Shown here piece after piece: positions 7,987 through 52,773 of a DNA stretch of 61,734 bases; position 1 is the first letter of the stretch, and each line of letters begins with the position of its first letter. A program made the position numbers and the translations under genes. The stretch lies in contig JAFGKA010000213.1 of NCBI GenBank assembly GCA_016928855.1, positions 1 through 61,734 on the forward strand, given 5' to 3'. Under the pieces are notes generated by a model. That model was not told the origin of the DNA. It made no database searches and saw only the letters and a list, made by a program, of their open reading frames with translations. The DNA is from Phycisphaerae bacterium. Lineage in GTDB: Bacteria > Planctomycetota > Phycisphaerae > UBA1845 > PWPN01.

Positions 7987-8066
7987 CGGTACCCCTAGCC
8001 TAATCGCGCTGTGACAGGATTTCAAGGCGAGGCCCAACACCGTCACGATGCCCAATTACACGGAAC

Positions 8067-8074: not shown

Positions 8075-8154
8075 CACAAATAAGTTGCGCGGCTGCAGGG
8101 TCGACGGGTGCCGACCGGTTTTCTTATCACGCCATGATAGGCCGAGGCGGCGGG

Positions 8155-8201
8155 CATCAGGCGCAGGCATATCCTGGACAACGCGCAACGGATCGTGTAC
8201 A
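8155..8201. mobile_element. Relic left end of an older copy of the Mu-like element (left part)
   Basis: These 47 bases match the left end of the resident element starting at 8202 (CATCAGGCGCAGGCA... onwards). Together with 22234-22273 they make an ungapped 87-base stretch identical at 80 positions to 8202-8288. The resident element has therefore inserted into the left end of an earlier relative. The last five bases, GTACA, are the target duplicated on insertion. The sequence before 8155 (GCGGG) shows no similarity, which agrees with CATC being the true terminus. Confidence 0.85.
8197..8201. repeat. 5-bp target site duplication, left copy (GTACA)
   Basis: GTACA directly precedes the element terminus at 8202, and an identical GTACA follows the right terminus at 22229-22233. 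Mu-family transposition duplicates 5 bp. Removing the element and one copy restores an uninterrupted relic left end, which makes chance unlikely. Confidence 0.85.
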
Positions 8202-8226
8202 CATCAGGCGCAGGCACATCGTGGAC
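8202..8226 (+). repeat. Left terminal inverted repeat of the Mu-like element
   Basis: It starts CATCAGGCGCAGG and ends GTGGAC. It pairs with the reverse complement of 22204-22228 at 20 of 25 positions. The terminus is fixed by the target duplication and by the point where both relic ends lose similarity. The 5'-CA start differs from the TG start of Mu itself. Confidence 0.82.
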
Positions 8227-8250
8227 AACGCGCAACGGATCGTGGACAAC
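8218..8250 (+). promoter_or_regulatory. Left-end transposase binding sites (ATCGTGGACAAC, two copies)
   Basis: ATCGTGGACAAC occurs at 8218-8229 and again at 8239-8250. A diverged copy, ATCCTGGACAAC, at 8171-8182 belongs to the older relic. The reverse complement recurs three times at the right end (22079, 22127 and 22201). This opposed clustering is the pattern of MuA-type end-binding sites. The assignment is by pattern only. Confidence 0.7.
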
Positions 8251-8323
8251 GGCGGCGCAGAACATCACCGCAGGCGGTCGGATGACCGTCGCGGTTCCAA
8301 AAAAATCGGAGAACCTCAACTTT

Positions 8324-8350
8324 TTTTCGGGGCCTCAAGCACCCCGAAAA
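8324..8350. other. Perfect 9-bp hairpin at the end of the late operon
   Basis: TTTTCGGGG (8324-8332) and CCCCGAAAA (8342-8350) form a perfect stem with a nine-base loop, 44 bases after the prohead protease stop. A U-run after the stem is lacking for leftward transcripts, so it is not a canonical intrinsic terminator. Its place between the last gene and the end sites suggests a transcription or RNA-stability role. Confidence 0.4.
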
Positions 8351-8393
8351 CGGCCCTTCGAAAGACCCTCAAACGGCCGTTCCGGGCCTATCC

Positions 8394-9536
8394 TCAAGCC
8401 GCGCTTCCACCGGGGCCGAGCACGGCCTCCAGGAGCTTCGCGGCTTCGACTCTCAGTACCCTGGCCTCTTCCGAGGCCGCCTCTTCTTCACCCCCAAGTT
8501 CTTCACCCCCAACCCCGCCGGCCTGGCCGTCCGGATCGTCGTCAAGGCCGTAGAGCATCGCCTTGGTGAATCCACCGTCCAGGGCTTCCGCCACGCCCAC
8601 GGACGCAGCCTGGAGCCTCTCTGCGATCGCCTCGAAGCTCTGGATGATCGCCTGGCGGATCTCGTTCGTTGTCGGCTCTTCGCGCTGTAGGATGCTCAGC
8701 GGCCCGGCCAGGTCACCCGACCGCGGGACGAACTCATCCGACGCGGCCAGCAGAAGCGAAGACTCCAGATCGGCCGTCACGACGCCGAGCCGGTCCAGCC
8801 CGTCCCGCACGGCCTCGACGATAATGTTCACGCCCCGGTCGATCGCATCCTTCCGCCTGGCCGTGCCGGCCTCGCGTGTCGCCTGCCACGTCAACTTCCG
8901 GGCCAGGGCGATGAGCCCTTCGAGCGGCTCCACGGCATCAAGCCGCGTATGACGCTGAAGCTCGGCGACAAGGGCGGCCTGAGAGTACGCTTGGTAGGCT
9001 GTGCGGCCGGCCACGTCTTGCGACATCGCCCGGATTAGCGCCTCACGGTTGCTCGGCACGGCCACGCAGGAGATCTCCACCAACTCCCAGGATGTTACGC
9101 GTCGCACACTCACCGAGCGCCCCGCGACCTGTTGCATCTCGGTCCGCCCGTCCCGGCGAAGGAAGCCGACGCTGAACGCGTTCATAAACCCACCGGCATA
9201 GAGCGCGCGATATTCCGGCCCGAGGCCGACCGGCGAAAACTCACCGCGGAACGGCAACGCTTCCTCGGTCGGTGCGATCTCCAGCACCTTGCCGATGACC
9301 GGGCTGTGCCCGCTCTCGAATCGCGGCTTGTGCATCGCCATCAGCACGGGGTTTTTCCGGTAGCTGGAGAGGTCCACGCCGCGCGGTTCCAGAATCTCAC
9401 CGTCGCGGTCGATCGTCCGCGCGTTGGCGAGTGCGCTGAACCGGCCCGAATCATCGACGCCCTTCTTGTCGATCTCGGCGAAGATGACGCCTTTCGATCC
9501 TATACCCAGGCCGTCTGGTTCCCGTACCTTTGCCAT
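8394..9536 (-). CDS. HK97-type prohead protease (peptidase S78-like)
   Basis: A 380-residue capsid-maturation protease. The N-terminal half has the family phrases ARTIDRDGEILEPRGVDLS, NPVLMAMH (catalytic His region) and WELVEISCVAVPSN (Ser/substrate region). The C-terminal 200 residues are acidic and helical and may be a fused scaffold-like region, as in other phages of this type. It starts with GGGAG upstream, 3 bases after the tape-measure-like gene. In most phages the protease precedes the capsid gene; here it is transcribed after it, an unusual order. Confidence 0.85.
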   Translation of the reverse strand: MAKVREPDGLGIGSKGVIFAEIDKKGVDDSGRFSALANARTIDRDGEILEPRGVDLSSYRKNPVLMAMHKPRFESGHSPVIGKVLEIAPTEEALPFRGEFSPVGLGPEYRALYAGGFMNAFSVGFLRRDGRTEMQQVAGRSVSVRRVTSWELVEISCVAVPSNREALIRAMSQDVAGRTAYQAYSQAALVAELQRHTRLDAVEPLEGLIALARKLTWQATREAGTARRKDAIDRGVNIIVEAVRDGLDRLGVVTADLESSLLLAASDEFVPRSGDLAGPLSILQREEPTTNEIRQAIIQSFEAIAERLQAASVGVAEALDGGFTKAMLYGLDDDPDGQAGGVGGEELGGEEEAASEEARVLRVEAAKLLEAVLGPGGSAA

Positions 9537-9539
9537 AAC

Positions 9540-11102
9540 CTACTCCCGTAGCGACTCGCCGCGCCGCTCCGGCGCCGGAGCCGGCCCGAAAAACTGGTTG
9601 CCGTGCACGTTTGTGATGTTGTTAATAATCTGCCCGGCCTCACTCGCCCGACCCGCCAAAATGGTCTCGGCGGTCGGATCGGGTAGCCCCCTTCGTGACC
9701 ACGGACGGCGGTAGCCACCGATCGACGCGCCGATGTCCCTCAGTTGGTCGATCTGCCCGGCGGTCTCTGGTGTTTCGCCGACCCGCCCGATCGCCTCCCC
9801 GATTCGTTCCTGTATCAGTTTGGCCTCAATGGCGGCGACTTCGTTTGCCGGCGGTCCGGAGAACACCCCCAGTTCACCTGTCGCGAGCTGCTCCTTGTAA
9901 ACCTCCTCCGCCTCCTGCCGCAGACGGGCCGCGTCAAATCGCCCTTGCATTCCACGACGAAACGCCCGACGTGCCGCATCCTGCCGGCTCTGCGCCAGCG
10001 GCGTCTTCGTGAACGCGGCCGCGTCCGCCATCGCTGCCGTCTGGTCGATGTTGCTCACCTCGGCGAACGCCGCGGCGCCGGCCGCGCGGCTACCGGCGCT
10101 GAACATCACGAACAGATCGCGAATGTCCTGCCCGCCCCCGAACGCGGCCGCCACAACGTCTTGCTGTTCGGGCGTGGTTACGCCGCCGAGAACCCCGCCG
10201 AGCAGTTGCATTCGCTTATCCAGGGTCATCGACCCGAACGCCTGGCCGCGTTCCTTTGCCGCAGCCTCCAGAAACTTGCGAGACTCCGGTGTTGGCCCGG
10301 ACGCCAGCCGCGCGAACGTCTTCATCGACGTGGCGGCCAGGCCACCTTCGGCCGCCTCCTGCCGCGCCGCCACCGCATATGCGACAGTCGTTTCCAGGTC
10401 CACACCCTGCGACAGCATCGACGTACCGCCCCGCAGCATCTGCCCGACAAACTCGCCGACCGTCTCGGCCTTGCTCATCTCGGCGCCGCGCTGAATAATC
10501 AGCGCCGCTTCCCACATGTCCCGGCCGGATGCGCTGATGATCTGGAGGAACTTGCCCGCCTCGGCCTCCGGAATCGCGCCGGCACCGACCAGCGGCGCGA
10601 ACGCATGCAGCTTTTCGAGATTCTCCCGAAGCTTCGGATTGCCCTTCCTGAGCCCCAACGAAATATCACCGCTAATCCCCAGTGACACCGCCGTCTGTAA
10701 GTCCGGCAATGCCCCGCGCTCCTGTATCTGCGTCGCAATCCGCAAGGCCCGCTGTTGGCCGGCGAGAGAGGTATCCCCTAATTGCTTGGCGAACGGAAGC
10801 ACCGTCTCAAGTGCCGTAAGCCCCTCGCGGGCGATTTCCTTCAGTGCCGCCTGCACCCGCTCAAGATGGCTAACGAGTGCGCCGATAACACCCACAATCG
10901 CCTGGATACCAACGAAGCCCGCTACAAATGCAACGGCGGCACCGCCAGCGTTCCGGAGCATCGCCCCGAGCCCGCCGGTTTTCTCTTTGGCCTTGTCGGC
11001 CTGCGTGCCGATCTGCTCCTCGGCGCCGGCCACGCCGCGGAGCTTCTGCTGCGCCTGCTCGGTCCCGTCGGCCGTTACCCGGATTTTGATTTCGTCAGGC
11101 AT
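9540..11102 (-). CDS. Tape-measure-like phage protein
   Basis: A 520-residue, Ala/Gly-rich, largely helical protein. It opens with a DNA- and tail-protein-like phrase (IKIRVTADGTEQAQQKLRGV) typical of tail tape-measure N-termini, followed by a hydrophobic stretch at about 49-77. Its body resembles the phage-minor-tail region (SGRDMWEAALIIQRGAE, LSQGVDLETTVAYA). At 520 residues it is short for a tape measure, and no other tail genes are nearby. GGGAG lies upstream of the start. The function is inferred from composition and N-terminal style. Confidence 0.6.
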   Translation of the reverse strand: MPDEIKIRVTADGTEQAQQKLRGVAGAEEQIGTQADKAKEKTGGLGAMLRNAGGAAVAFVAGFVGIQAIVGVIGALVSHLERVQAALKEIAREGLTALETVLPFAKQLGDTSLAGQQRALRIATQIQERGALPDLQTAVSLGISGDISLGLRKGNPKLRENLEKLHAFAPLVGAGAIPEAEAGKFLQIISASGRDMWEAALIIQRGAEMSKAETVGEFVGQMLRGGTSMLSQGVDLETTVAYAVAARQEAAEGGLAATSMKTFARLASGPTPESRKFLEAAAKERGQAFGSMTLDKRMQLLGGVLGGVTTPEQQDVVAAAFGGGQDIRDLFVMFSAGSRAAGAAAFAEVSNIDQTAAMADAAAFTKTPLAQSRQDAARRAFRRGMQGRFDAARLRQEAEEVYKEQLATGELGVFSGPPANEVAAIEAKLIQERIGEAIGRVGETPETAGQIDQLRDIGASIGGYRRPWSRRGLPDPTAETILAGRASEAGQIINNITNVHGNQFFGPAPAPERRGESLRE

Positions 11103-11386
11103 TCTGCTCCCATCTTCTACAATTCCTGTCGCCCGGTCATCGGCCCGTGGCCGCGCTTGAACTGCGTTTCCACGCCACGAAAACGCCGTTCAAGGGCGGC
11201 CCCGGCTGGGGCAACCCTCACAAAAGGATAGCAGGCATCTGCGGGCGTTATCGCCGGCCCGGTGAGAAGCCCCGGGACTTGCCACGACCCGCTGGGCAAG
11301 CGCAGAGCCGGCCCGCTCCACGGGCTCACGTCGGCTCTGTATTTCTGATGCGTCGATCGCATGCTTTCACTTCATCACCGCGCCGA
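11103..11386. other. Non-coding gap after the capsid gene, with a stable hairpin
   Basis: The 284 bases between the capsid stop and the tape-measure-like start hold no convincing gene. An 8-bp perfect stem pairs 11303-11310 with 11332-11339 (CAGAGCCG/CGGCTCTG), with an inner GCCCG/CGGGC stem. There is no U-run on either side. It could attenuate transcription after the highly expressed capsid gene or mark where genes were lost. Confidence 0.4.
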
Positions 11387-12592
11387 TCAGGAATCCGCGG
11401 TCTTCAAGCCGATGATTCCACCGGGGTTGCTCGCATCGCCGCGGCTGACGCAAACGAAGTCTTGCCTCTGTGTGGCCCTCACCGCGAGAAGATCCTGCGA
11501 GAAGTATGCATCCGTGCTGCGCGCGATCTGGAGATCCCTGCGGACGCCGAGCAGGCAGCTCTTGCGGAAATCGCCGAACAGCGCGCACACCTGCGTGTTC
11601 GCTTCTGTGGAGGGCATCTTCGAACTGAAGTGGACCGGGTAGCCCAAAAACCTAGTCTGGCCGCCGATCACACCTAAAGTTATCTCTTGGGCCGTGACAC
11701 CCCCCGCCGCAAAGGCGAGCTTTTGCATCACTTCGTAAAAGAACTTGCGGTGCACGAGCCACCGCGCGTTGGCGTCGGCAAAATTCGGCAGCAGCCCTAT
11801 GACCTCCTGAAAATCGGCGAGCGTTAACTCACTGTACGCGTTGCCGCTGCCGGTTACCTTGCTGCCGGCCTGCAGCGCGGCGCGGACGCCGAGCACCTCC
11901 AGGTACGTGCTCGATCCGTCCCCATTGATGGCACTGTCGTCCATCTGCTCTGACATCGCGGTCGCGACCTCGTCTACGAGATACTCGCCAACACCGATGA
12001 CAGCGTCTTCGCTGAGTTCGCTCGAAATGGCCGTCAGCACTCCCCATTTCCGGGCGACCAGGTTGACGGCCTGAAGTGTCGGCGTGCTCGCCGTGATCGC
12101 GTTCCCCTCGCCGGGTTGGTAGACCGTCAGACCGGCCGACGCGACGGGCCAGGCTTGTGAATCGTGGCTCATCGGGACGACGCGGGCGAGTTGTCGCATG
12201 ACCCCGTAGGTATCCTGCAACCGAAGCACTTCGGCTGCCATATCCCGCGGGACCAGGATGCCGCCGCCGGCCTCCGTGCCCTCAACCAGCGTCTTGACAT
12301 CGACACCGTACTCATCCGCGGCCTTCCGGGCCGCATCGCGTTTCCCGGCGAGCGCCATCGCGAGCACCCCGAACCCCTCCGCGGCTCGCCTGCTCATCAG
12401 CTTGCCGCCGTAGTCGCTCGGGATGCTCCGGATCTGCTCCCGCCAGGCGGTATACTGCTTTTCCTGCTCACGCTTGACGACGTCCAACTCATCGGCGAAC
12501 TTTCCGAGGATATCGTCATTCTTGCCGAGCTTGTCCGCCACAGCCTTGAGGCTGTGTTGCACCTCGCCCAGGGCACTATTCATCGTACTCAT
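11387..12592 (-). CDS. Major capsid protein, HK97 fold
   Basis: A 401-residue capsid subunit. Residues about 1-90 form a coiled delta-domain-like leader (SLKAVADKLGKNDDILGKF...REQEKQYTAW). The rest has the HK97-family features TEAGGGILVPRDMAAEVLRL, SGLTVYQPGE-like strands, KWGVLTAISSELSEDA and the loop AINGDGSSTYLEVLGV. Loss of the leader by the prohead protease encoded in the same element would be expected. The start at 12592 has GAGAGG 9 bases upstream. It leads the structural block, directly after small unknown genes. Confidence 0.88.
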   Translation of the reverse strand: MSTMNSALGEVQHSLKAVADKLGKNDDILGKFADELDVVKREQEKQYTAWREQIRSIPSDYGGKLMSRRAAEGFGVLAMALAGKRDAARKAADEYGVDVKTLVEGTEAGGGILVPRDMAAEVLRLQDTYGVMRQLARVVPMSHDSQAWPVASAGLTVYQPGEGNAITASTPTLQAVNLVARKWGVLTAISSELSEDAVIGVGEYLVDEVATAMSEQMDDSAINGDGSSTYLEVLGVRAALQAGSKVTGSGNAYSELTLADFQEVIGLLPNFADANARWLVHRKFFYEVMQKLAFAAGGVTAQEITLGVIGGQTRFLGYPVHFSSKMPSTEANTQVCALFGDFRKSCLLGVRRDLQIARSTDAYFSQDLLAVRATQRQDFVCVSRGDASNPGGIIGLKTADS

Positions 12593-12751
12593 TGTGTACA
12601 CCTCTCGCGGGCCGATGCCCGCGTCGTTCACTGTTCCAACCGCCGGCGTTTTTCAATCGGGCCACCGGCCCCGCCCGTCGTGCCCTCTTGTCTCGGTCTC
12701 GCGTATGCGCTGTCGCCGGCGAAGGCTGTCCGGCCGCGTGACGCTTGAGAC

Positions 12752-13174
12752 CTACTGCGACGGCTCCTCCGGCAATCGCAGAGCTGCATCCATCACCAGC
12801 CACGCCGCTTCCGCGACGCGTTCGGCGTCCGCCCCGGGGACCATCCGCCCAAGAGCTTCCACCACTTCGACGAAACCGCCGCCGCTACCATCGCGAATCG
12901 CGACGAAGCACGCATCGAGCAGTGGGCCCACCTCGACACCCAACAGATCCGCGGCGACCAAGACCGGTCGCACATAAACGTAGCGCCGTCGCAAGTCCCG
13001 CAGCTTCGCGTGCCCGCGGCTGATGATCCGCGGGATCAACCGCCGTAGTCGTGTCGCCTTGGCGTCGTCGATGCCGTCGAGTTCGGCGAGCCACGCCGGC
13101 GCCTTCGCCTCGAACGTTTCGAGTTCGTGCGCAAACTGGACCGCACTGGCGTTGACTATCGCGAGCTCACTCAT
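12752..13174 (-). CDS. Mu-like element hypothetical protein (140 aa)
   Basis: A 140-residue, mostly helical soluble protein (LAIVNASAVQFAHELETF... RLRRLIPRIISRGHAKLRDL). It has no recognised family. The start at 13174 was chosen because residues upstream read as non-conserved extension. It lies between the capsid gene and the small 122-residue gene, the place where portal or head-assembly genes would be expected, but nothing in it identifies such a role. Confidence 0.6.
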   Translation of the reverse strand: MSELAIVNASAVQFAHELETFEAKAPAWLAELDGIDDAKATRLRRLIPRIISRGHAKLRDLRRRYVYVRPVLVAADLLGVEVGPLLDACFVAIRDGSGGGFVEVVEALGRMVPGADAERVAEAAWLVMDAALRLPEEPSQ

Positions 13175-13325
13175 CGCACTGGACGCCCTCAAAACAAAGC
13201 GCGGCCAGGCGGACCCGTCCGGGCCAACCAAGCCGCACTGTTATCGGAATCCGTTCCTTCATATGATGGCATCCTGCCCACCGGGCCGCCGTCCCTGGCG
13301 GCCGCACCCGCCGCGATCGCGGCGC

Positions 13326-13694
13326 CTACTTCATCTTCGCCCGCCGCTTCTTTGCGGTCGCGTCCTTCGTCGCGTACCGTTGCCGCTCACGCCTCGCCTG
13401 CCGTTCCACCACGCCCACGCCGATGGCGTCCAGGTCGGCGCGGATCTCGGCGGCCAGGCCGATGACCGCCTTCCGCTCCGCGTCGTGGAGCTGCCCGCTT
13501 GCCAGCGTGTGCACGACCAGGCGCAGCCGCGCCGCACAGTCGGCTAACGCGTAGAACACGCCGGCCGCCAGGTCGTCCTTCATCCAATCGAGTGATAGAC
13601 TGTATTTCGAGACCTGCCCGAACCGCACCGGCGGTCCTTCGCCCTCGATTTCCTCCAGCGTCGGTATCGCCGTCTTGATTCCTGTTCCGTACAT
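13326..13694 (-). CDS. Mu-like element hypothetical protein (122 aa)
   Basis: A 122-residue protein with a basic C-terminal tail (ERQRYATKDATAKKRRAKMK) and a helical centre. GGGAAGG precedes the ATG at 13694, giving good support for translation. The basic tail suggests nucleic-acid contact. No family is recognised. Confidence 0.6.
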   Translation of the reverse strand: MYGTGIKTAIPTLEEIEGEGPPVRFGQVSKYSLSLDWMKDDLAAGVFYALADCAARLRLVVHTLASGQLHDAERKAVIGLAAEIRADLDAIGVGVVERQARRERQRYATKDATAKKRRAKMK

Positions 13695-13762
13695 AGAACA
13701 CCTTCCCGTTCAATCACCGCACTTCCGCCATCAGGCGGGTTCGTCGGACTCCTCGGTCGCCA

Positions 13763-14182
13763 TTAGTCGGCGGCCGAGTCCTCGGTAAACGCAACACCCA
13801 TCTGTGCGGCCTTGCGACTTTGATATGACCGCCACTTCGCGTAGTTGTAGACAGCCGCACGTCCACCCCGACAATCGCCGCTCAGATGAAAGACTTCCGT
13901 CTTGCCAAACTTCGTAGGAATTGCCGCAACGCCGTAGTGCTTATCGAGCGTGGCGTAGCACTCCAGACAAATAAACGCCCTCCGGTGCTGGCTGTTTCTG
14001 TGATACTGAACGTAGGCCCGGAAGAACTCATCTTGAAGGTGTTCCGGGATGGCGTTCAAATCCGGAAACTTGTTCTTGATCCGCTCGAATTCGCGTTCAG
14101 GATCGACCCGCATCCGCACGGAGCGAGCCATGGGGGCTCGGCACCCGCACGCCTCACATTCGATCGTATTCTTCTTGCTCAT
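13763..14182 (-). CDS. Zinc-ribbon-like element protein
   Basis: A 139-residue protein with two Cys-containing knuckles: IECEACGC near the N-terminus and FICLECYATLDKHYG in the middle. They could bind zinc together. An extended start at 14218 is possible, but its ribosome site would be almost touching the ATG. The role is unknown; phage Zn-ribbon proteins of this size are often transcription modulators or nuclease partners. Confidence 0.6.
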   Translation of the reverse strand: MSKKNTIECEACGCRAPMARSVRMRVDPEREFERIKNKFPDLNAIPEHLQDEFFRAYVQYHRNSQHRRAFICLECYATLDKHYGVAAIPTKFGKTEVFHLSGDCRGGRAAVYNYAKWRSYQSRKAAQMGVAFTEDSAAD

Positions 14183-14248
14183 GAATTTTGTCTCACTTGC
14201 GTGGTTCGGGGTTTTCATTCACCTCAGCGCGCCGCCCGTTTTCACCCT

Positions 14249-14452
14249 TCATGCGGCACCGCCTGGCGACTCGTCGTAATCCGGTGAAAGGCCTTCGAGC
14301 ATATCCATAAGCGACCGCATCCCCTGCCACTTCATGCGCCGGGTGATCTCGGCCACGATCGTTGCCCGCCAGATCAACTCATCCAAAACGCCATCAAGAT
14401 CCTCGGCGGTCCCTTTCTTTAGTTCCGCCAACATTCGTTCGCGCGTTGTCAT
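14249..14452 (-). CDS. Small helical element protein, paralogue of the next upstream gene
   Basis: A 67-residue protein whose pattern (ELKKGTAEDLDGVLDELIWRATIVAEITRRMKW broken into helices) parallels that of the gene at 14449-14763. Its ATG overlaps the stop of that gene (ATGA). The two appear to be tandem duplicates. The function is unknown. Confidence 0.6.
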   Translation of the reverse strand: MTTRERMLAELKKGTAEDLDGVLDELIWRATIVAEITRRMKWQGMRSLMDMLEGLSPDYDESPGGAA

Positions 14453-14763
14453 GATTGGATGACCTCCGCCTTCTGCTGTTGGCCTTCACCTGCATCGCCG
14501 CCGCTCGGGTCGAGAAGCTCACCGACCTCTTCATCATCCAGATCCGGTACGGTCGATTCCTGGAGGTTCTTCAGTATCTTCATGTCCCAGTAATGCAGTT
14601 GCCCTGTGATCCTCGCGATGATTCTCGCCCGCGCCCGCAACTCGCCGCAGACGGCATCAAGGTCTTCCTCGCTGGCACACTTCAGCAGCGTGTCACAGAC
14701 GATATCGAAGTCCTCGCCCTTCGCGCCCCTCAACAGCGCTAGTAGTTCCTTCTTTGTTACCAT
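14449..14763 (-). CDS. Small helical element protein, paralogue of the next downstream gene
   Basis: A 104-residue acidic helical protein. It contains two internal repeats of a unit like GEDFDIVCDTLLK and EEDLDAVCGELRARARIIARI, and the second unit is also seen in the 67-residue neighbour. The start at 14763 follows a plausible ribosome site. It may be an adaptor or regulatory partner of the MuB-like protein encoded just upstream, but this is only position-based. Confidence 0.6.
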   Translation of the reverse strand: MVTKKELLALLRGAKGEDFDIVCDTLLKCASEEDLDAVCGELRARARIIARITGQLHYWDMKILKNLQESTVPDLDDEEVGELLDPSGGDAGEGQQQKAEVIQS

Positions 14764-14944
14764 GATCCCGTACTCCTGTGCCTGTGAAATGGAGCCCGGC
14801 CCGCCGGCAACCCGCAAGGGGGGATCGCGGGGGCAGCCGTAGTGGTCGGCCGCCGGCCGGCAGGGCCGGGCACGCTTGGATACGTTACGGCCACTACCCG
14901 CAACGCCATTGGAAACCCATTCGAACTGTTGTTACTTCGCGTTT

Positions 14945-16219
14945 TCACGCCGTCCTCGGGGCATACAACTGCTGCACCTGGCGGTCAGTCTCGGCCGTCA
15001 CATCGTCGCCCATCGCCAGCCGGTTCGCCTGGCGGACCATCTCCAGAGTGATGAGCGGCTTTCCCGGATTCGCAATCATCGCGATCTCGAAAACACTGAT
15101 GGCATACCGAAGCCCGCCGCCCTCGACGCCGTCGCCGAGCGCCGTCAGATTCGCCAGGTCGGTCAGGAACTTGATCGCGCCGCGTTCAATCCGCACGGTA
15201 TACTTCCCCAACATCTCGGCGACCTCCTCGACACTGAAAAGCCGCTCGCCATCTCGCCCACCGGTCTTCTGACTGCGTGCGAGCAAGTCCCGTTGGATGC
15301 AGATCCGGCCGACGATACTGCCGCCGATCCGCTCATCCCGCTGCGACCGTTTGAGCTTCGCAACCAGCAGCGGCCGGCCCGCCAGAACCACCGGACAGCC
15401 TGTCGCGTCATGGATCTGGCGAATTGCGTTGAGCGTGTCCGCCGGCAACGCGTCCGCCTCGTCCGCGACGATCAGCCGCTTCGAGCCGGCCAGCCTTGCG
15501 ACGATCGCAGAGAAGCCGGCGGCAAGCGTGCACACCCCTTCATTGTGGGATGCCCCCGCCACGCGGCCCGGCAGTGCCGAACCCGTGCGGATGCACCGAA
15601 GCAATGTGCGGTAGAAATGCAGCGGGGCCTTGCAGGAGTCGTTGATCTCGACGTACAGCCCGCTCGGGAAATCCTTGGCCATCACCGCGCGGAGGGCGAG
15701 CGTTTTGCCGATGCCCGACGGCCCGTAAACGACACCCATCCCGCCGCGAAGATCGACCGTCTTGACGATCGCGAACACCTCGCGCGCTACACCCGTCGTG
15801 ACGAACTCGCCCTTGGCCGGCGCGTTGGCCCGCGCGGCCTCACGGGCCAGTGCCGCATCGAGCGAGCGCAACACATCATCCCGCCGGTTGCGTTCACCCT
15901 GCCGCCCTGAATCGCCCTGCAACGCCATGCCCAGCACGTACACAGACACGCCGCATAGCCGCGCCAGATCCACCCGGGACGCGCCAGTCGCCCGCTGATA
16001 GACTTCAGCGCGGCCGACAATCTCGGCGCGGATTTCCTCGGTCAACTCGGCCCCGGGTTTGACGCGCGGCGTGCTTTCGACGCGCGCGGCCCGCTCGATA
16101 CCATCCATGGCGTCCGGTGGCGCATCCGGCGGCATGGCCGGCGCGAATGGATCAGTAACCCAGTCGGATACATGTCCGCCCGGGGGAATCGTCGGCTTGT
16201 TGTGTGGTGTGTCCGTCAT
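14945..16219 (-). CDS. MuB-like AAA+ transposition ATPase
   Basis: A 424-residue ATPase expected to bind target DNA and activate the transposase. An N-terminal helix-turn-helix (about 72-105, SRVDLARLCGVSVYVLGMAL), as in MuB, precedes the AAA domain. Walker A GPSGIGKT is at 166-173 and Walker B LIVADEAD at 249-256. It overlaps the transposase gene by four bases (ATGA), so the pair is translationally coupled. MuB and TnsC/TniB share this layout; linkage with a MuA-like protein and capsid genes favours MuB. Confidence 0.9.
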   Translation of the reverse strand: MTDTPHNKPTIPPGGHVSDWVTDPFAPAMPPDAPPDAMDGIERAARVESTPRVKPGAELTEEIRAEIVGRAEVYQRATGASRVDLARLCGVSVYVLGMALQGDSGRQGERNRRDDVLRSLDAALAREAARANAPAKGEFVTTGVAREVFAIVKTVDLRGGMGVVYGPSGIGKTLALRAVMAKDFPSGLYVEINDSCKAPLHFYRTLLRCIRTGSALPGRVAGASHNEGVCTLAAGFSAIVARLAGSKRLIVADEADALPADTLNAIRQIHDATGCPVVLAGRPLLVAKLKRSQRDERIGGSIVGRICIQRDLLARSQKTGGRDGERLFSVEEVAEMLGKYTVRIERGAIKFLTDLANLTALGDGVEGGGLRYAISVFEIAMIANPGKPLITLEMVRQANRLAMGDDVTAETDRQVQQLYAPRTA

Positions 16220-18141
16220 CCTGCATCAGCCTCCGGGAAGCTTGCTGTCTCCTGGCTCCAGCTTTTCGCTTCCTCCTCATCCTCGACGGTGTCGCGAAAT
16301 AGGTCCGCGAAGCTCAGCGGCACCGCGGCTTCATCGGTGCGCTCGACGCGCTGCGCATCAATCGCACCCGCCAGGTCATCCAACGTCAGCGCCTCATCAG
16401 GCCCGGTTCCGCACCCGGCCGGCTCTGAGCCCGACACACGAAACTGACACATCGCGTCCGCCCAGTCGCTCTTCAGCGGCCGTATCGTGCGCGTCGGCGC
16501 AGCGTCATCGGTGCCGGTCGCGGCGATCAGGCCATTCATCGCGTCATGTTCGCGCTGACGTTTGGCGGCGCGATTCCGCGCATCAATGGCCGCTTCGGTA
16601 ACAGTTTGCATCGCGGCGCGCGTGCCGCCGTCCTGGACCGCGCTGGCCAGCCGGCGGGCCTGTTTCTTGGCTCGCATTCCCTTGGCGATGTCATCACGTG
16701 ATGCACGTGCAAACGCCAGGCGGTTATTCGTCGCCCGGCAGATCGGCTTGCCTTCAAGATCGCACACAACAACATACGATGCATCTTCGGGATGCACGCG
16801 AAGCAATACTTCCTTGCCTTGCAAGAGCTGAAGCCTGGCTTCTCCGAGCCCATACTCGATGCCGTCGTGGCGAACGCCGAAACGCGTAACCTTGACCGGC
16901 CGGCTTACGCGCATCAGCAAGAGGTCCATGAGCCCCTCAGGCACAACGACGCGCGGAATCGGGTTCGACGCGTTGAACACGTCGATCGGGGCACGTCCGT
17001 TCATGTCCACGCCGCGGTGTGGTGTGCGGTGATACGCGTCAATGTATTTCGTGAAGCCATCCCGATACCGGGCGATTGTCGGACACCGCTCGGGATGTGC
17101 TTTCGCAACCCTGTAGGCGGCCTGGAATCGCGCGTCCTTCTTGCCTCCGCAATACGTTTCGTAGGTGGCACCGTACTGGCCTTCGAGCGTTCCAAACCAT
17201 CGTTCAATCAGCTTCGAATCAGGGTTGAATGGAAGCGCAAAGCTAACTTCGGAGCCGACGCCGCCGAAGACGGAACGGCAGTAGTCCTCATCTTCGATCA
17301 GCCGTTTCGTGGTCGGCCGCCCGCCGCTGATTCCCTTGGCGCGGTAGGGCTTGCCGTTGTCGATGATGACCTCGGCCGGTGGCCCCCACTTCTCAATACC
17401 GTCGCGGAAGGTTAAGAGTACGGCGTCTTGGTTCTCGGTTTCGCCGATCGTCCAACCCGTAACGATGCGGCTTCGCAGGTCGATGAACGCGCCCAGCCGC
17501 GGCCGAATGATTTCCGGGTCCGCATCGCTGCGCCGGCAAAAGACATCGACGATATGGAAGTCGCCAACCCAGCACTGATTCGCGCGGTATTCCGTGTAGT
17601 CGCGAGAAGGAACCCGCACGCCGTGCTTACGATCCCATTCCTCTTCGCCGAGCCGGTACCGGTTCGCTTCGAATTCGGAAATCTCACGTCTGACTTTCGC
17701 TTGAACCGTCCGCAGCGAAGGCCACGCCCAACCCTGGCGCTCTGCCTCCGCGGCAACAAGCTGGCAACACAAGGCCACGGTCCGTTGCTGTCTCGTCAGC
17801 CAGAATTTCTTGAACAGATTCCACGCCTCCGGCGAACATGATTCCCGCCGCGTATCGCGATTCGCTCGCCGCCGGCCATCAACAAGACCGAGCACGTCGC
17901 CGGCCTCAATCAGGCGCGCCCAGTCGTGCAGTTTCGAGCGCCCGACCCCGTGCATCCCGCAGAACACCCGGTCGGCCTCGCCCCGCGTTGCCCCACGGCG
18001 CACCAAATCACAGCGCATCTGCTTCCACTCGGACACAATCCGCGTCTTGCGCCCGACCTCAAGCCGCTGTTCATCCGACAACCCCGCAAGCGCCGCCCGT
18101 TGCGGATCGACGGCAATCTCTCGGCGCGCCGCAAGTGCCAT
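16216..18141 (-). CDS. MuA-like DDE transposase
   Basis: A 641-residue transposase. The N-terminal region (about 20-180) carries DNA-binding helices. The rve-type catalytic core follows with D194 (WVGDFHI), D261 (VIIDNGKPY) and E313 (LIERWFGTLE). The first two are 67 residues apart, as I recall for MuA. A mu-transpos-C-like beta-barrel follows (about 400-470, PVKVTRFGVRHDGIEYG). The acidic C-terminus probably contacts the MuB-like ATPase. It starts within a TGATG overlap with the sigma-like gene. All three catalytic residues are present, so it may be active. Confidence 0.93.
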   Translation of the reverse strand: MALAARREIAVDPQRAALAGLSDEQRLEVGRKTRIVSEWKQMRCDLVRRGATRGEADRVFCGMHGVGRSKLHDWARLIEAGDVLGLVDGRRRANRDTRRESCSPEAWNLFKKFWLTRQQRTVALCCQLVAAEAERQGWAWPSLRTVQAKVRREISEFEANRYRLGEEEWDRKHGVRVPSRDYTEYRANQCWVGDFHIVDVFCRRSDADPEIIRPRLGAFIDLRSRIVTGWTIGETENQDAVLLTFRDGIEKWGPPAEVIIDNGKPYRAKGISGGRPTTKRLIEDEDYCRSVFGGVGSEVSFALPFNPDSKLIERWFGTLEGQYGATYETYCGGKKDARFQAAYRVAKAHPERCPTIARYRDGFTKYIDAYHRTPHRGVDMNGRAPIDVFNASNPIPRVVVPEGLMDLLLMRVSRPVKVTRFGVRHDGIEYGLGEARLQLLQGKEVLLRVHPEDASYVVVCDLEGKPICRATNNRLAFARASRDDIAKGMRAKKQARRLASAVQDGGTRAAMQTVTEAAIDARNRAAKRQREHDAMNGLIAATGTDDAAPTRTIRPLKSDWADAMCQFRVSGSEPAGCGTGPDEALTLDDLAGAIDAQRVERTDEAAVPLSFADLFRDTVEDEEEAKSWSQETASFPEADAG

Positions 18142-19262
18142 CAGGCCGCCCCCTTCGTCTCTGTTACTGCCCTGCCCGCTCCCTCCCCGCGGATCTCGAC
18201 GAAGAAATCAACCGGCACACCAAACGCCACGGCCATCCGGCACACGACCCCCATCGTCGGCGTGACGACACCGGCCAGCCATCGCCGCACGGCCGGCGGC
18301 GTCGTATGGACACGCTGGGCGAGCCCCTCGACCTCTAGTCCATGTTTCACCATCAGGTCAGCCACCGCCTCCCGCCGGAACACCGGCCGCGGCGGCGTTG
18401 TTTTCGGCGTCTCGGCCGCGGCCCGGCCCGTGTCAGCCGATGCCGGGCGTGTTGCGGACGCGGCCCGCACCCCTGCCGACAAAAACGCGAGTTCACCATC
18501 ATCGACTTGCCGCATCAAAATCCGTTCGGCGCGGCGGAGGATGTTGGTCTGCACCCGCTCCACCTGCTTGCGGCCGTACCCAAACCGATCGCCGATCTGC
18601 CTCGCTGGCGTAGCGTAGGCTGGCATCGTACAAAGTCGCCCGTCAAGCAGCGCGCGGCCCACTTCACGATTCAGCGGCTTGCGCATGGTGGCGATGACAT
18701 CCGCCAGCACGGCGCGCACGTGTTCAACCGCACGAAAGTAGACGTCTTCCGGAATTCCATCCGCCCGGCCTGGCCGCGAGAGCGGCCGACCACGCCGCCC
18801 GCGTCGCTGGCGAACGCCGTCGCCGACGGCCTCGGTCAGCGAAAACGACCGGCAGGCATCAGTAATCCGATCCCGCGTGCCGGCCGCAATGCCGCCGGTC
18901 CCCCGCAGAGCATGCGATACCGTGTTCGGCGAGATAACGACCGCGCGTCCATGCTCCATCCGGAACCGCCGAATCGCCCGCCGAACGCGAATCGTCGCGT
19001 AATACCCGAAGGTCATGCCCGGGTAACGGCCCTGTTCCGCCCGCCAGTCAAGAGCCGTCTCGATCAGCGCGACGACCGCCACGATGATGTAATCGTCCCG
19101 GTCATAGTATCGGCCCTCGACCCTCGACAACGCCGCATTATTGGCACTCTTAATCGCCAGCGGAACATGATCCAGAACCAGCCGCCGTTCATCGGCCGTC
19201 AGCCTTCGCTCCCCGCCGCGGCGGTTCGTCCGGACCTCAGTTTTTCGCGTTTTTATTGACAT
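18141..19262 (-). CDS. Sigma-70-like factor fused to a C-terminal XRE helix-turn-helix
   Basis: A 373-residue protein. Residues about 28-115 resemble sigma region 2 (DRDDYIIVAVVALIETAL...MTFGYYATIRVRRAIRRF, like the DLIQEG/FSTYA-W-IRQAI block). Residues about 195-250 resemble region 4 (ARQIGDRFGYGRKQVERVQTNILRR). Residues about 300-350 form a Cro/CI-type HTH (EVEGLAQRVHTTPPAVRRWLAG). Such a factor could redirect host RNA polymerase to element promoters, replacing the Mor/C activators of Mu. It overlaps the transposase gene and is coupled to its upstream neighbour. The fusion is unusual. Confidence 0.75.
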   Translation of the reverse strand: MSIKTRKTEVRTNRRGGERRLTADERRLVLDHVPLAIKSANNAALSRVEGRYYDRDDYIIVAVVALIETALDWRAEQGRYPGMTFGYYATIRVRRAIRRFRMEHGRAVVISPNTVSHALRGTGGIAAGTRDRITDACRSFSLTEAVGDGVRQRRGRRGRPLSRPGRADGIPEDVYFRAVEHVRAVLADVIATMRKPLNREVGRALLDGRLCTMPAYATPARQIGDRFGYGRKQVERVQTNILRRAERILMRQVDDGELAFLSAGVRAASATRPASADTGRAAAETPKTTPPRPVFRREAVADLMVKHGLEVEGLAQRVHTTPPAVRRWLAGVVTPTMGVVCRMAVAFGVPVDFFVEIRGEGAGRAVTETKGAA

Positions 19263-19792
19263 TATCCGCGCTTCCGCCGACGCGCGCCGTGTGTCGTTTT
19301 TAAGGCATCATCCGCGCCAGCCACCGGCGAGACCACGCCATCGCGTACCCATCGACACACGTCGGCGATCTCGACCCGGCCGCGATGCAACCCGGCCGGA
19401 CGCCGAAGCCGCCAACGTGGCACGCCATCGCGGTCCCGTTCACACGCCGCCAGGCCAAGGTCAGTCAACAGCCGAAGCCGGATCTCGTCTGCTGGGTCGC
19501 GAGCGTATCTCACGCGTCCCCATACCCGCCGCGGCTCGCTGATTGCCCCGCGTTGAAGCCCACTATCCCCGCGCCGCAATGCTGCTCGCCGCCAACGAAA
19601 CAAGCTGCTGGCCGAGACCCGCAGCCGGGGATACTCCGCCTGAATCGCGCGCAACAACGATCCCATGGCTGCCGTGCGAGACCCCCACGGTACTCGCTGC
19701 ACTTCGTCGAGCGCGGCAACCCACGCGCGCCTCTCCTGCTCGGTCGCCTGTCGGCGGTCAGATGGTGCCGTCCTGTTGCGACGTCGGGTCAT
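19262..19792 (-). CDS. Putative DNA-binding element protein
   Basis: A 176-residue, very basic protein (Arg-rich at both ends). It has a helix-turn-helix-like stretch at about 45-75 (LLRAIQAEYPRLRVSASSLF) and a second basic helical part at 105-145. No family is recognised. It is coupled by overlap to genes on both sides in the early operon (xre upstream, sigma-like downstream), so it is likely an early regulator or an excision or transposition helper. Confidence 0.6.
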   Translation of the reverse strand: MTRRRNRTAPSDRRQATEQERRAWVAALDEVQRVPWGSRTAAMGSLLRAIQAEYPRLRVSASSLFRWRRAALRRGDSGLQRGAISEPRRVWGRVRYARDPADEIRLRLLTDLGLAACERDRDGVPRWRLRRPAGLHRGRVEIADVCRWVRDGVVSPVAGADDALKTTHGARRRKRG

Positions 19793-20058
19793 GCGGCTTC
19801 GTCCCCCGCCTGCGGCTCAACTTCTTGCTTGGCTAACACCCCGGCCTCGGCCGTTGTAGACACAATTAGTGCGGAGACTGGGACGCGCAGCGCCCGCGCC
19901 ACGCCCCGCGCGACCCGCACGCCCACCGGCCGCCCGCTGAAGACCAAAGACAATGTCGCAGGCGCGACTCCCGCCTTCGCCGCAACATCCTTCTTCAGTA
20001 GGCCGCGGCGCGTCCGAATGTCGTCAATCAATCTGGCGTTCAGCACAACCTTGGCCAT
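19789..20058 (-). CDS. XRE-family regulator (Cro-like, first early gene)
   Basis: An 89-residue Cro/CI-type protein with HTH at about 14-45 (RRGLLKKDVAAKAGVAPATLSLVFSG). It is the first gene of the leftward operon and is divergent from the larger XRE repressor gene at 20198, the classic lytic/lysogenic switch layout. The start at 20058 was chosen over 20073 because the HTH then begins at a normal distance. It overlaps the next gene by 4 bases. Confidence 0.75.
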   Translation of the reverse strand: MAKVVLNARLIDDIRTRRGLLKKDVAAKAGVAPATLSLVFSGRPVGVRVARGVARALRVPVSALIVSTTAEAGVLAKQEVEPQAGDEAA

Positions 20059-20078
20059 GGCCGCCCACTGCACCCTTT

Positions 20079-20163
20079 GTTGTCCATACGAATAACAGCT
20101 CGTCTTTTGAGAAGATACAACACATCCGGCCTGGAGTCAACCCCAAAATCGTCTTTTGTCCAT
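20079..20163. promoter_or_regulatory. Divergent switch region with repeated operator-like motifs
   Basis: TTGTCCAT occurs at 20080-20087 and 20156-20163, and TCGTCTTTTG at 20100-20109 and 20149-20158. A leftward promoter is plausible: minus-strand TTGTAT (20115-20120), a 17-base spacer and TGTTAT (20092-20097). The repeated motifs flank it symmetrically, as repressor operators would. Confidence 0.5.
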
Positions 20164-20191
20164 TGCTTATTCATCTGGGCTGCCGTATACT
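20163..20191 (+). promoter_or_regulatory. Rightward promoter giving a leaderless repressor mRNA
   Basis: TTGCTT (20163-20168) and TATACT (20186-20191) are separated by 17 bases. Transcription would begin about 7 bases after the -10 box, which is at the GTG start codon 20198. No Shine-Dalgarno is visible before this start. Maintenance transcripts of lambda cI are also leaderless. Confidence 0.55.
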
Positions 20192-20197
20192 GCATCC

Positions 20198-21736
20198 GTG
20201 GCCACGGACGAACAGTTATCCGCATACATGGAATCCGTGCGCAGGCAGCGGGGTCTCCCCGCTAGTGCTGTGGCCTGCCGGTCAGGCGTTTCACTTGGCC
20301 ATATCCGCAATATTGAGAGGGGCTTGCGCCATCCGAAGGCCGCGGTGCTGGCGCGAATTCTCGACGCCCTCGACGCCACGGACGTTGAGCGGGCTGAGGC
20401 CCGCCGCCTGGCGGGTATCGACCCGAATCCGTCCACATCAAAGGAAGCGCGGGCGGCAAGACGGGGGAAGTGGCAGCCCCTCACCTTCATTCTGGCAAAC
20501 GACATACTACTTCCGTGCCTGCGGCTCGATTACGCGTTCGGCGCGCGCCTTGATCTCGCGGGCAACGCCTGGGCACTGGTCCATCAAGCCCTGAAGGCCG
20601 CCGACATGGCGACGTTCGTGGACCAGACCGCCGATGTTGTATCGCCGCCGCCGGACTTGACCACACTGCTCGAATCATCGTTCGGACATGCCCCGGCGGA
20701 CCTTGTTGAGGGTCTCGAATCACTCCTGTCTGACGAGCGGTATCTCAACGAGATGAATCGGCACTCAGGTCAACCCCCGCTGGCGTGGAAACATACGATG
20801 TTGCGATCGTTGATCCTGTCGCCAGCGCCTCCCACAGGCAAGGACGCGGTTTTCCTTCGTGATGTCGTCGAAATGCTCACGTTTGACCGCAGCTTCGCCG
20901 TATGCTTCTTCCCGGCCGTCTATTGGACGGCTTGCCGCAACTGGCCGTTTGAAAAGGTTTGGATGCCATTGTCACGGGCCTCGAAATCCCTGCAAAAAGC
21001 TGTGTATGAGCGAATCCAGGCCGGTTTATCGCTCGAAGATTTCGACCGCGCGATGATCGGTCAAGGTGATCTCGGGGACGTGGTCCGCCGGGCCGAGCCC
21101 GCGAGATTCTCTCCCGATGAAATGGCCGACAGTCCAGGAAGACCTTGGTCGTGGGAGGTTGGCCGGGGATCGTGCCGGGTAACATTCAGCGGGCCGCGCC
21201 CACCGAACGATCTTGCTTTCGATCATCTCGACCGCTGCACATTCCTGGAACGGTTCCCGTATTTGAAAGTTGACCGAGAGGCCGCCGCAAAGCTCGCCCG
21301 CTCCGTTATGCTGCCGTCGTGGCAAGCATGGGTAGACCATATTATCCAACACGAACCAGCCGTCCCGGCGGACCACCCCCTGCGCTCCAAGGACCGCTTC
21401 GACGCGGTCGTTGCCGAATACCGCGACACAGAGACCCGCGAGCCGAACTATGGCGAGCTTCCGAGCCTCATTCACCGGCTGGTATCACTGAAGGCTGGCT
21501 GGGCAATGGCGGCCTTGGAGGGGTGGGCCAGCGGCGGCCTTGCAGAACCTGGCCGCCGAACGAGGATCGCCGCGATGCTTGGTTTCCGTGATGCCTGGCA
21601 AGATATCATCAGAAAACTGGAAGAGGAAACACCGCCCGGGGGCGCTGAGAAGCCGACCGCCCCGGACACACAACCGGCCAAGCGTAGGCGGCCCGGCCGC
21701 AATGCCACAAGGCCGGGAAGACGGGAGCAAGCGTGA
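20198..21736 (+). CDS. XRE-family repressor with a large unknown C-terminal domain
   Basis: A 512-residue protein, the only rightward gene of the element and the likely repressor of the divergent early operon. Residues about 8-60 form an HTH (RQRGLPASAVACRSGVSLGHIRNIERG). The remaining ~440 residues match no repressor sensor I recognise. They contain Trp-rich helical segments (FPAVYWTACRNWPFEKVW) and a basic, Pro-rich tail. Phage repressors are usually 90-240 residues, so the extra domain is notable. GTG 20198 is chosen from promoter geometry; TTG 20156 and ATG 20228 are alternatives. Confidence 0.7.
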   Translation: MATDEQLSAYMESVRRQRGLPASAVACRSGVSLGHIRNIERGLRHPKAAVLARILDALDATDVERAEARRLAGIDPNPSTSKEARAARRGKWQPLTFILANDILLPCLRLDYAFGARLDLAGNAWALVHQALKAADMATFVDQTADVVSPPPDLTTLLESSFGHAPADLVEGLESLLSDERYLNEMNRHSGQPPLAWKHTMLRSLILSPAPPTGKDAVFLRDVVEMLTFDRSFAVCFFPAVYWTACRNWPFEKVWMPLSRASKSLQKAVYERIQAGLSLEDFDRAMIGQGDLGDVVRRAEPARFSPDEMADSPGRPWSWEVGRGSCRVTFSGPRPPNDLAFDHLDRCTFLERFPYLKVDREAAAKLARSVMLPSWQAWVDHIIQHEPAVPADHPLRSKDRFDAVVAEYRDTETREPNYGELPSLIHRLVSLKAGWAMAALEGWASGGLAEPGRRTRIAAMLGFRDAWQDIIRKLEEETPPGGAEKPTAPDTQPAKRRRPGRNATRPGRREQA

Positions 21737-22078
21737 CCATAGAGCCCGCCCCGGACCGCCCGCCCCGGCCACCGGCCGACGCTCGAGCCGCCGACGGAAG
21801 GGCGGTAAGCCGTGAGCCCACGGTGCCCTGCCGACCAGGAGCCACCACAGAGAGGAATACACCACCGCGATCGGCGCCGCCTCCGCGTCTCGGCCACCCG
21901 GCAGACTGGACGCCGAAAAGGCCCCTCCGTCCCGGGTTCTCCACAGACCCGAGCCGCATTGTCAAGAAGTTTGGCACACCAAATGCTAGGGGTAAAAAGC
22001 CCCTTGAATGGCCGTCCAAGATGCGCTGCGCGTTTTCGGCCCTATCGCCGCAACTCCAGCCCCCGCCAACAATTACGC
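21737..22078. other. Non-coding right arm of the element
   Basis: This holds no supportable gene: open frames here are compositional shadows in Pro/Arg-rich GC sequence. A small AGGGG/CCCCT hairpin around 21987-22002 may help end the repressor transcript. The right-end sites follow. Confidence 0.5.
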
Positions 22079-22212
22079 TTGTCCACGATAGGCCCGATTT
22101 CTGCGCACACCCCCGATTTTGACGATTTATCCACGATAGGCGCCGCGGCCCATAACCCCAGCCCCAGCAAGCATTTAACCCCGTTTTTCTGCCCTTTTTA
22201 TTCGTCCACGGT
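22079..22212 (-). promoter_or_regulatory. Right-end transposase binding sites (three copies)
   Basis: TTGTCCACGAT (22079-22089), TTATCCACGAT (22127-22137) and TTCGTCCACGGT (22201-22212) are inverted relative to ATCGTGGACAAC at the left end. The first two are followed by AGG and lie 48 bases apart. This matches the multi-site ends bound by Mu-type transposases. Confidence 0.68.
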
Positions 22213-22228
22213 TTTCCTGCGCTCGATG
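22204..22228 (-). repeat. Right terminal inverted repeat of the Mu-like element
   Basis: Read on the minus strand this begins CATCGAGCGCAGG and ends GTGGAC, matching the left terminus at 20 of 25 positions. It is followed directly by the GTACA duplication at 22229. Confidence 0.82.
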
Positions 22229-22233
22229 GTACA
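22229..22233. repeat. 5-bp target site duplication, right copy (GTACA)
   Basis: Identical to 8197-8201. It abuts the element terminus on one side and the continuation of the older relic on the other. Confidence 0.85.
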
Positions 22234-22273
22234 GCGGCGGCGCAGAACATCGCCGCAGGCGGTCGATTGACCG
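22234..22273. mobile_element. Relic left end of an older copy (right part)
   Basis: These 40 bases (CGGCGGCGCAGAACATC and onward) match 8249-8288 inside the resident element, with 4 mismatches. Joined to 8155-8201 they recreate the older left end without gaps. The stretch also folds: GCGGCG/CGCCGC, CCGC/GCGG and CGGTC/GACCG stems follow one another. No older element body remains after 22273. Confidence 0.82.
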
Positions 22274-23248: not shown

Positions 23249-23310
23249 CGCCGTTACCTCACGTTGGCTGGTTCGAGACTGCTCCAGCCTGTCGATTCCG
23301 AGGTCCTGTT

Positions 23311-52704: not shown

Positions 52705-52773
52705 TTGCCTTTCCTCCATCGAGAACGCAAGGCCAGATGAGAACAAGCCCGCAACTACTGTTTTCTCAGTGTG

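What the first reader, a model, noticed from the sequence alone, without database searches (positions are those of the whole stretch)
8202..22228. 14-kb Mu-like element with capsid genes but no terminase, portal or tail set
Both ends are intact, and the transposase, ATPase and repressor look whole. The late region consists of capsid, tape-measure-like and protease genes plus unknowns, in an order (capsid before protease) unlike usual head modules. Either an intact phage lost most late genes, or this is a transposable satellite that builds its own capsid and borrows the rest, analogous to capsid-forming PICIs but moved by a MuA system. That combination would be new to me.
Basis: partly seen in the sequence, partly recalled or inferred. 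Interest (0 to 1): 0.75.

Follow-up and report, generated by a model that had tools for sequence, protein, structure and literature searches.

The report
Jumping capsid-carrying phage satellite
A 14-kb stretch of this bacterial genome is a Mu-type jumping element that keeps genes for a virus shell but none for packaging DNA or building a tail; similar cut-down elements sit in thirteen other genomes, so it is probably one of a family of virus parasites that make their own shell and borrow the rest from a larger Mu-like virus.

Summary
The element spans 8196-22233 (14,038 bp). It has Mu-type inverted ends with MuA-site-like repeats, an intact MuA/MuB pair, an HK97 capsid, an S78 prohead protease and a tape-measure homologue. 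It has no terminase, portal or tail set. It lacks a target-site duplication.

It is not a one-off wreck. In the same bacterial class (relatives named Phycisphaerae MAGs) I found 13 more loci with protease+capsid (often TMP) and no terminase or portal, some cut by contig ends. Those with both ends located are 7.2-9.2 kb; three have perfect 5-bp duplications, and one contig is exactly one element from TGTA to TACA. Several lack MuA/MuB too, so they would be non-autonomous. Twelve of their capsids form one clade (100/100), sister to capsids of full phages. Capsid and protease are under purifying selection (dN/dS about 0.1). A full phage's left end matches a satellite's end. The window element and G605 are separate, parallel origins.

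Best explanation: Mu-type transposing, capsid-carrying phage satellites that borrow terminase, portal and tail from helper Mu-like phages. Helper dependence and particle formation are inferred, not shown. I found no description of transposase-moved satellites in the papers searched.

The parts
8196..8250 (+). left end: TGTACA terminus with two ATCGTGGACAA sites (8218-8228, 8239-8249)
8394..9536 (-). prohead serine protease (S78), 380 aa
   Evidence: Pfam PF04586 5.7e-05, phrog_80 6e-19
9540..11102 (-). tape-measure homologue, 520 aa
   Evidence: phmmer to satellite TMPs L227 2.6e-25, L231 1.8e-15, L232 1.9e-13, and to a full phage (G507) 1.1e-17; TMP157-family profile 2.5e-05; family member L226 hits PF10145 PhageMin_Tail 4.6e-15; one aligned member hits phrog_58 tape measure 0.0013
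11387..12631 (-). HK97-type major capsid protein, 414 aa
   Evidence: PF05065 5.6e-39, phrog_10 1.4e-40; profile finds GTA and phage MCPs in PDB
12752..13231 (-). unknown, 159 aa; predicted all-helical (pLDDT 78), no fold match
13326..13694 (-). unknown, 122 aa
   Evidence: no match
13763..14218 (-). unknown, 151 aa, Cys pairs suggest zinc binding
   Evidence: sequence; no family match
14249..14817 (-). two small paralogous acidic proteins (67 and 122 aa)
   Evidence: paralogy 4.9e-07
14945..16219 (-). MuB-type transposition ATPase, 424 aa
   Evidence: phrog_296 6.8e-37, PF13401 2.5e-15
16216..18141 (-). MuA-type DDE transposase, 641 aa
   Evidence: phrog_310 1.5e-85; Pfam DDE_2, HTH_Tnp_Mu_2, Mu-transpos_C
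18141..19262 (-). HTH regulator, 373 aa
   Evidence: PF01381 2.6e-07
19262..19792 (-). unknown, 176 aa
   Evidence: no match
19789..20073 (-). small Cro/Ner-like HTH protein, 94 aa
   Evidence: PF01381 8.8e-07
20156..21736 (+). divergent repressor-like protein, HTH plus long C-terminal part, 526 aa
   Evidence: PF13560 1.4e-10; relative beside MuA in G608 6.9e-08
22079..22233 (-). right end: sites ATCGTGGACAA (22079-22089), ATCGTGGATAA (22127-22137), CCGTGGACGAA, and terminus TGTACC

Best explanation
The element is a Mu-type transposing phage satellite that carries its own capsid. Shown: it has Mu-type ends, an intact MuA/MuB pair, lysogeny-type regulators, and capsid, prohead-protease and tape-measure genes, but no terminase, portal or tail genes. 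Related elements with the same reduced set recur across the class; three of them have perfect 5-bp target duplications; their capsid lineage is separate from that of full phages and under purifying selection. Inferred: the divergent repressor keeps it silent as a provirus. On induction, or on infection by a Mu-like helper, MuA/MuB transpose it replicatively. Its capsid protein and protease then form a prohead, probably small. The helper's portal, terminase and tail parts complete and fill the particle. Its own tape-measure protein would set or fit the tail. Relatives that also lack MuA/MuB would depend on the helper's transposase, as MITEs do on insertion sequences.
For: (1) Element anatomy and gene content. 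(2) The same reduced set without TerL or portal in other genomes: G537 (contig JACZKQ010000052.1, exactly TGTA...TACA, 9,184 bp: rep, A, B, small gene, protease, capsid, 148-aa protein, TMP), G605, G142, G388:C121, G738 and L141. (3) MuA/MuB-less versions L226-L231, three with perfect duplications ACTAT (8,482 bp), GGGGT (8,827 bp) and ATATT (8,209 bp), and a shared end motif TGTAR-N10-WWATGGC. (4) No TerL of the Mu-like profile anywhere in five genomes that carry such elements (G605, G142, G388, G738, G537). (5) Capsid tree: 12 satellites in one clade (100/100), sister to 14 capsids of which 13 come from full head modules. (6) dN/dS about 0.12 (capsid) and 0.09 (protease). (7) The left end of a full phage (G157, TGTAAAACGAAAGGATAAATGGC) matches a satellite's end (G388, TGTAAAACGAAACGGGATATGGC); G573 carries a full phage (C46) and a satellite (C52) in one genome, G388 a phage fragment (C141) and a satellite (C121). 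(8) The window TMP is closest to satellite TMPs.
Against: The window capsid is not inside the main satellite clade, so its membership rests on parallel layout and the TMP link. It has no target duplication. No complete helper was identified in its genome, only a Mu-type TerL-portal-protease fragment at the edge of contig C224 and a gpT-type capsid on C378. None of the 80 IMG/VR contigs retrieved was a complete satellite, so there is no sign of encapsidated DNA. Keeping a capsid without a portal is mechanically demanding and has no experimental precedent that I found.
Confidence: 0.66

Rival explanations
1. A defective Mu-like prophage: a full transposable phage in which internal deletion and rearrangement removed terminase, portal and tail genes, leaving a decaying remnant.
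For: Full-length relatives exist in the same class (G157, G466, G477, G573). The window copy lacks a target duplication and has odd repeats at both flanks. In G605 the transposase is interrupted. The capsid-TMP-protease order is unusual.
Against: Every gene of the window element is open. The same reduced set recurs with at least three origins, one of them a stable 12-member capsid clade under purifying selection. In full phages the late module lies divergent, on the other side of A-B, so simple deletion does not give this layout.
Confidence: 0.17
2. A domesticated or mobile protein shell (encapsulin-like or GTA-like) rather than a satellite: capsid and protease make closed shells with a host-related role, moved by transposition.
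For: Capsid without portal or terminase would give closed shells. The closest solved relatives include the Rhodobacter GTA capsid.
Against: Retained tape-measure gene, phage-type regulators, transposition ends with target duplications in relatives, and insertion sites in different host lineages all point to a selfish element. Encapsulins do not need a prohead protease (general knowledge).
Confidence: 0.08
3. A self-sufficient small phage with unrecognised terminase, portal and tail genes among the unknowns.
For: Several small genes have no assigned function, and the 373- and 526-aa regulators have long uncharacterised parts.
Against: The unknown genes are 67-176 aa, too small for a terminase ATPase-nuclease or a portal. 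The 159-aa protein is predicted helical without a fold match. They are not shared with the relatives.
Confidence: 0.05

Closest known systems
[quoted passage not shown]
   Same: Small element (cf-PISP about 15 kb), own HK97 capsid and head protease, no own complete tail, separate capsid lineage with several origins (PMC11389934 reports three cf-PICI radiations).
   Different: cf-PICIs encode portal, connectors, HNH and terminase and borrow only tails (PMC10690885, PMC13230959). This element has none of these, keeps a tape-measure gene, and moves by MuA rather than a tyrosine integrase.
Transposable phages (Mu, BalMu-1, hankyphage type)
   Same: MuA/MuB pair, TG...CA ends with multiple binding sites, divergent repressor; MuA 27% identical to BalMu-1 over 78% of its length.
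   Different: 14 kb instead of 36-40 kb; no packaging, portal or tail set.
MITEs / laboratory mini-Mu
   Same: The MuA-less relatives (L226-L231) keep ends and, in three, target duplications but no transposase gene, so they need one in trans.
   Different: They carry conserved coding genes for capsid, protease and tape measure. The window element has its own transposase.
P4, SaPI, PLE, PICMI satellites
   Same: Small integrated elements without a full virion gene set.
   Different: Those redirect or reuse helper capsids; here the capsid protein is encoded. Different integration machinery.
Streptomyces satellites MulchRoom / MiniFlayer; tycheposons; VEIMEs
   Same: Satellites described as small phage-dependent elements; MulchRoom and MiniFlayer encode encapsidation genes.
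   Different: MulchRoom and MiniFlayer encode terminase and portal (PMC10690885). None of these is reported to move by a Mu-type transposase in what I read.

Membership tests
Transposable (Mu-like) phage | MuA DDE transposase and MuB ATPase | tested here: met
   phrog_310 1.5e-85, phrog_296 6.8e-37
Transposable (Mu-like) phage | Inverted TG...CA ends with several inward MuA sites | tested here: met
Transposable (Mu-like) phage | 5-bp target-site duplication | tested here: not met
   GATCG vs GCGGC in the window; met in relatives L226, L228, L229
Transposable (Mu-like) phage | Complete packaging, head and tail genes | tested here: not met
   no TerL, TerS, portal, connector or tail-tube/baseplate match
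cf-PICI | Own capsid and head protease | tested here: met
cf-PICI | Own portal, connectors, TerS/TerL and HNH | tested here: not met
   definition from PMC10690885, PMC13230959
cf-PICI | Tyrosine integrase and att-site integration | tested here: not met
   no integrase; MuA and Mu-type ends instead
Phage satellite (general) | Mobile element lacking essential virion functions | tested here: met
Phage satellite (general) | Conserved as a reduced element in several genomes, under selection | tested here: met
   13 further loci; 12-member clade; dN/dS about 0.1 in relatives. For the window's own lineage only one copy is known
Phage satellite (general) | Mobilised in particles by a helper phage | not testable with these tools
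   needs induction and virion sequencing
MITE-like non-autonomous element | No own transposase, ends recognised by a relative's transposase | tested here: not met
   the window element has MuA/MuB; L226-L231 lack them
P4 / SaPI (capsid-redirecting satellites) | Size-redirection protein acting on the helper capsid | tested here: inconclusive
   no sequence match; unknown helical protein 12752-13231 has no fold match

The most novel reading that the evidence does not exclude
Phycisphaerae harbour a previously undescribed kind of phage satellite. It moves by Mu-type transposition, in autonomous and non-autonomous (MITE-like) forms, and carries a dedicated capsid lineage with protease and tape measure while borrowing terminase, portal and the rest of the tail from transposable helper phages. 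It arose at least three times.
Probability: 0.6. Interest if true: 0.86.

Novelty: new variant of a known kind. Interest (0 to 1): 0.79.

Why it matters
Known satellites with capsid genes that I read about also carry terminase and portal, and use integrases or plasmid replication. Here the division of labour is cut elsewhere: shell, protease and tape measure are kept, motor and portal are given up, and mobility is by a DDE transposase. Repeated independent reduction to nearly the same set suggests that these are the parts worth owning. That would make it directly testable whether a satellite can set head size and tail length with its own shell while a foreign portal and terminase fill it. The MuA-less forms would be MITE-like elements that are also virus parasites, linking two kinds of genomic hitchhiker.

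Tried and rejected
Close relatives of the window capsid or transposase in IMG/VR with a single-protein query: none. A profile query found 80 contigs, nearly all ordinary head modules.

The 43-bp direct repeat as a host repeat family: rejected, only two copies in the genome. A left end at 8094 with a GCGGC duplication: rejected, because it lacks the inverted terminal sequence and the binding-site spacing.

Mu-like TerL in the own genome as a helper: a Mu-type TerL-portal-gpI fragment (C224) and a gpT capsid (C378) were found, but both border host genes; linkage and completeness are unknown.

Empty-site test with a flanking gene in 13 same-family genomes: only about 40% identical relatives, inconclusive.

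Structure of the 159-aa unknown: helical, no significant match.

Ends of G605 and of the full phages G477 and G303 were not convincingly located.

Transposase tree: compact and full elements interleave, so the transposase alone does not define the satellites; the capsid does for the main clade.
Full report
Observation. The window is contig C322 of a 5.28-Mb, 606-contig assembly. Between a host GntR/LacI-type regulator (6817-8055) and a host TIM-barrel gene (22298-23314) lies an element whose best inverted ends are 8196 and 22233. Both ends carry inward copies of ATCGTGGACAA. Inside are, on the minus strand and in transcription order, a small HTH gene, two further genes, MuA, MuB, five small unknowns, HK97 capsid, tape-measure homologue and S78 protease; a divergent repressor-like gene lies on the plus strand. 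Profiles for TerL, TerS, two portal types, neck and tail proteins built from relatives find nothing else in the window. There is no 5-bp duplication, and fragments like the element's own left end lie on both flanks. I read these as the trace of an earlier relative at the site or of an adjacent deletion; this is not resolved.

Relatives. MuA relatives, most of the strong ones at 29-36% identity, occur in 49 of 397 genomes of the class; four of the relatives' contigs carry the names of Phycisphaerae or Phycisphaerales MAGs. Fetching the surroundings shows two kinds of element. Full transposable phages (G157, G466, G477, G573 and others) have a divergent TerL-portal-protease-capsid module, and tail genes elsewhere. 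Compact elements have repressor, A, B, a small gene, protease, capsid, a 148-152-aa protein and TMP, with no TerL or portal. G537's contig of 9,184 bp begins with TGTA and ends with TACA and holds exactly this set. G605 (ClpP-like protease; transposase interrupted), G142, G388:C121, G738 and L141 are further cases, several cut by contig ends. A TerL profile finds none in the genomes of G605, G142, G388, G738 and G537; other terminase families were not excluded there.

Non-autonomous forms. A capsid-profile search over the class led to seven more loci (L226-L232) with protease, capsid and TMP and no TerL or portal, most of them flanked by host genes. L226-L231 have no complete MuA or MuB; L229 and L230 have short proteins matching part of MuA. 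L226, L228 and L229 have TGTA...TACA ends with perfect duplications ACTAT, GGGGT and ATATT. L227, L231 and G388:C121 show the end motif TGTAR-N10-WWATGGC at both ends, L230 at one end, without a perfect duplication. Lengths are 7.2-9.2 kb. The left end of the full phage in G157 has the same motif and the same first 12 bases as one copy at the G388 satellite's left end. G573 carries a full phage (C46) and a satellite (C52) in one genome; G388 carries a phage head fragment (C141) and a satellite (C121).

Evolution. In a 42-row capsid tree, 12 satellites form one clade (100/100). Its sister group is 14 capsids, 13 of them from full head modules. The window capsid and G605 lie elsewhere, so the label needs three changes on the tree. 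L227 and L228 capsids give dN 0.28 and dS 2.4; proteases 0.27 and 3.0 (dS is near saturation). The window tape measure matches a satellite tape measure (L227 2.6e-25) better than the best full-phage one (1.1e-17). A second reduced type, portal without TerL or tail (L166, L190, L199), and a 14.4-kb element with TerL and portal but no tail (G198), were also seen.

Mechanism. Steps shown: structure, intact genes, recurrence, selection in relatives, shared ends. Steps inferred: silencing by the repressor, replicative transposition, prohead assembly, use of helper portal, terminase and tail. The retained tape measure suggests that head size and tail length are the properties the satellite keeps for itself.

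Known kinds. cf-PICIs encode the full head and packaging set and borrow tails (PMC10690885, PMC13230959). The review PMC11389934 lists satellite families and treats MITEs separately; in the passages read, no family moved by a Mu-type transposase appears. Searches for phage satellites with transposase and MuA, and for mini-Mu with satellite and helper phage, found no paper; the library is open-access only. I therefore call it a new variant of a known kind (phage satellites), not a member of cf-PICIs, because integrase, portal and terminase were tested and are absent.

Limits. Nearly all relatives are draft assemblies. The window lineage is known from one copy. No particle data exist. Gene calls in the Python scripts are from my own simple caller, and small genes may be missed.

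Noticed in passing
window 8155-8248 and 8246-8288 / 22231-22273: A 47-bp tandem repeat at the left end and a 43-bp direct repeat, one copy inside the left end and one just outside the right end; the 43-bp repeat is found nowhere else in the genome. Looks like the left end of an earlier related element at the same site.
   Followed up: partly
L119 / L248 (G000:C224:1-3775) and L247 (G000:C378): The same genome holds a Mu-type TerL, portal and gpI protease at a contig edge beside a host gene, and a gpT-type capsid on another contig beside host genes: possibly a second head-only element or helper fragment.
   Followed up: partly
L235 (G438:C18) and L238 (G404:C61): HK97 capsid genes in islands with a tyrosine integrase, one with a primase-like gene, without a detected TerL or portal: perhaps another type of capsid-carrying satellite in this class.
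   Followed up: partly
L166, L190, L199 (IMG/VR) and L032/L033 (G198): Transposable elements with portal-MuF and capsid, a tape measure where the contig reaches that far, and no tail genes seen; TerL only in G198. They look like intermediate degrees of reduction.
   Followed up: partly
L077/L078 (G555, 36.6-48.2 kb of contig C36) and L082 (G419): MuA/MuB elements with a tape-measure-like gene but no capsid (G555), and MuA/MuB alone between host genes (G419).
   Followed up: no
L228:3139-6138: Genes that look (by eye) like a three-Cys-motif partner protein and a Gp37/Gp68-type protein lie next to the L228 satellite.
   Followed up: no
window 52024-53850: Two secreted-looking proteins with a PEP-CTERM-like tail (VPEP...RRRR), in the lowest-GC part of the window.
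   Followed up: no
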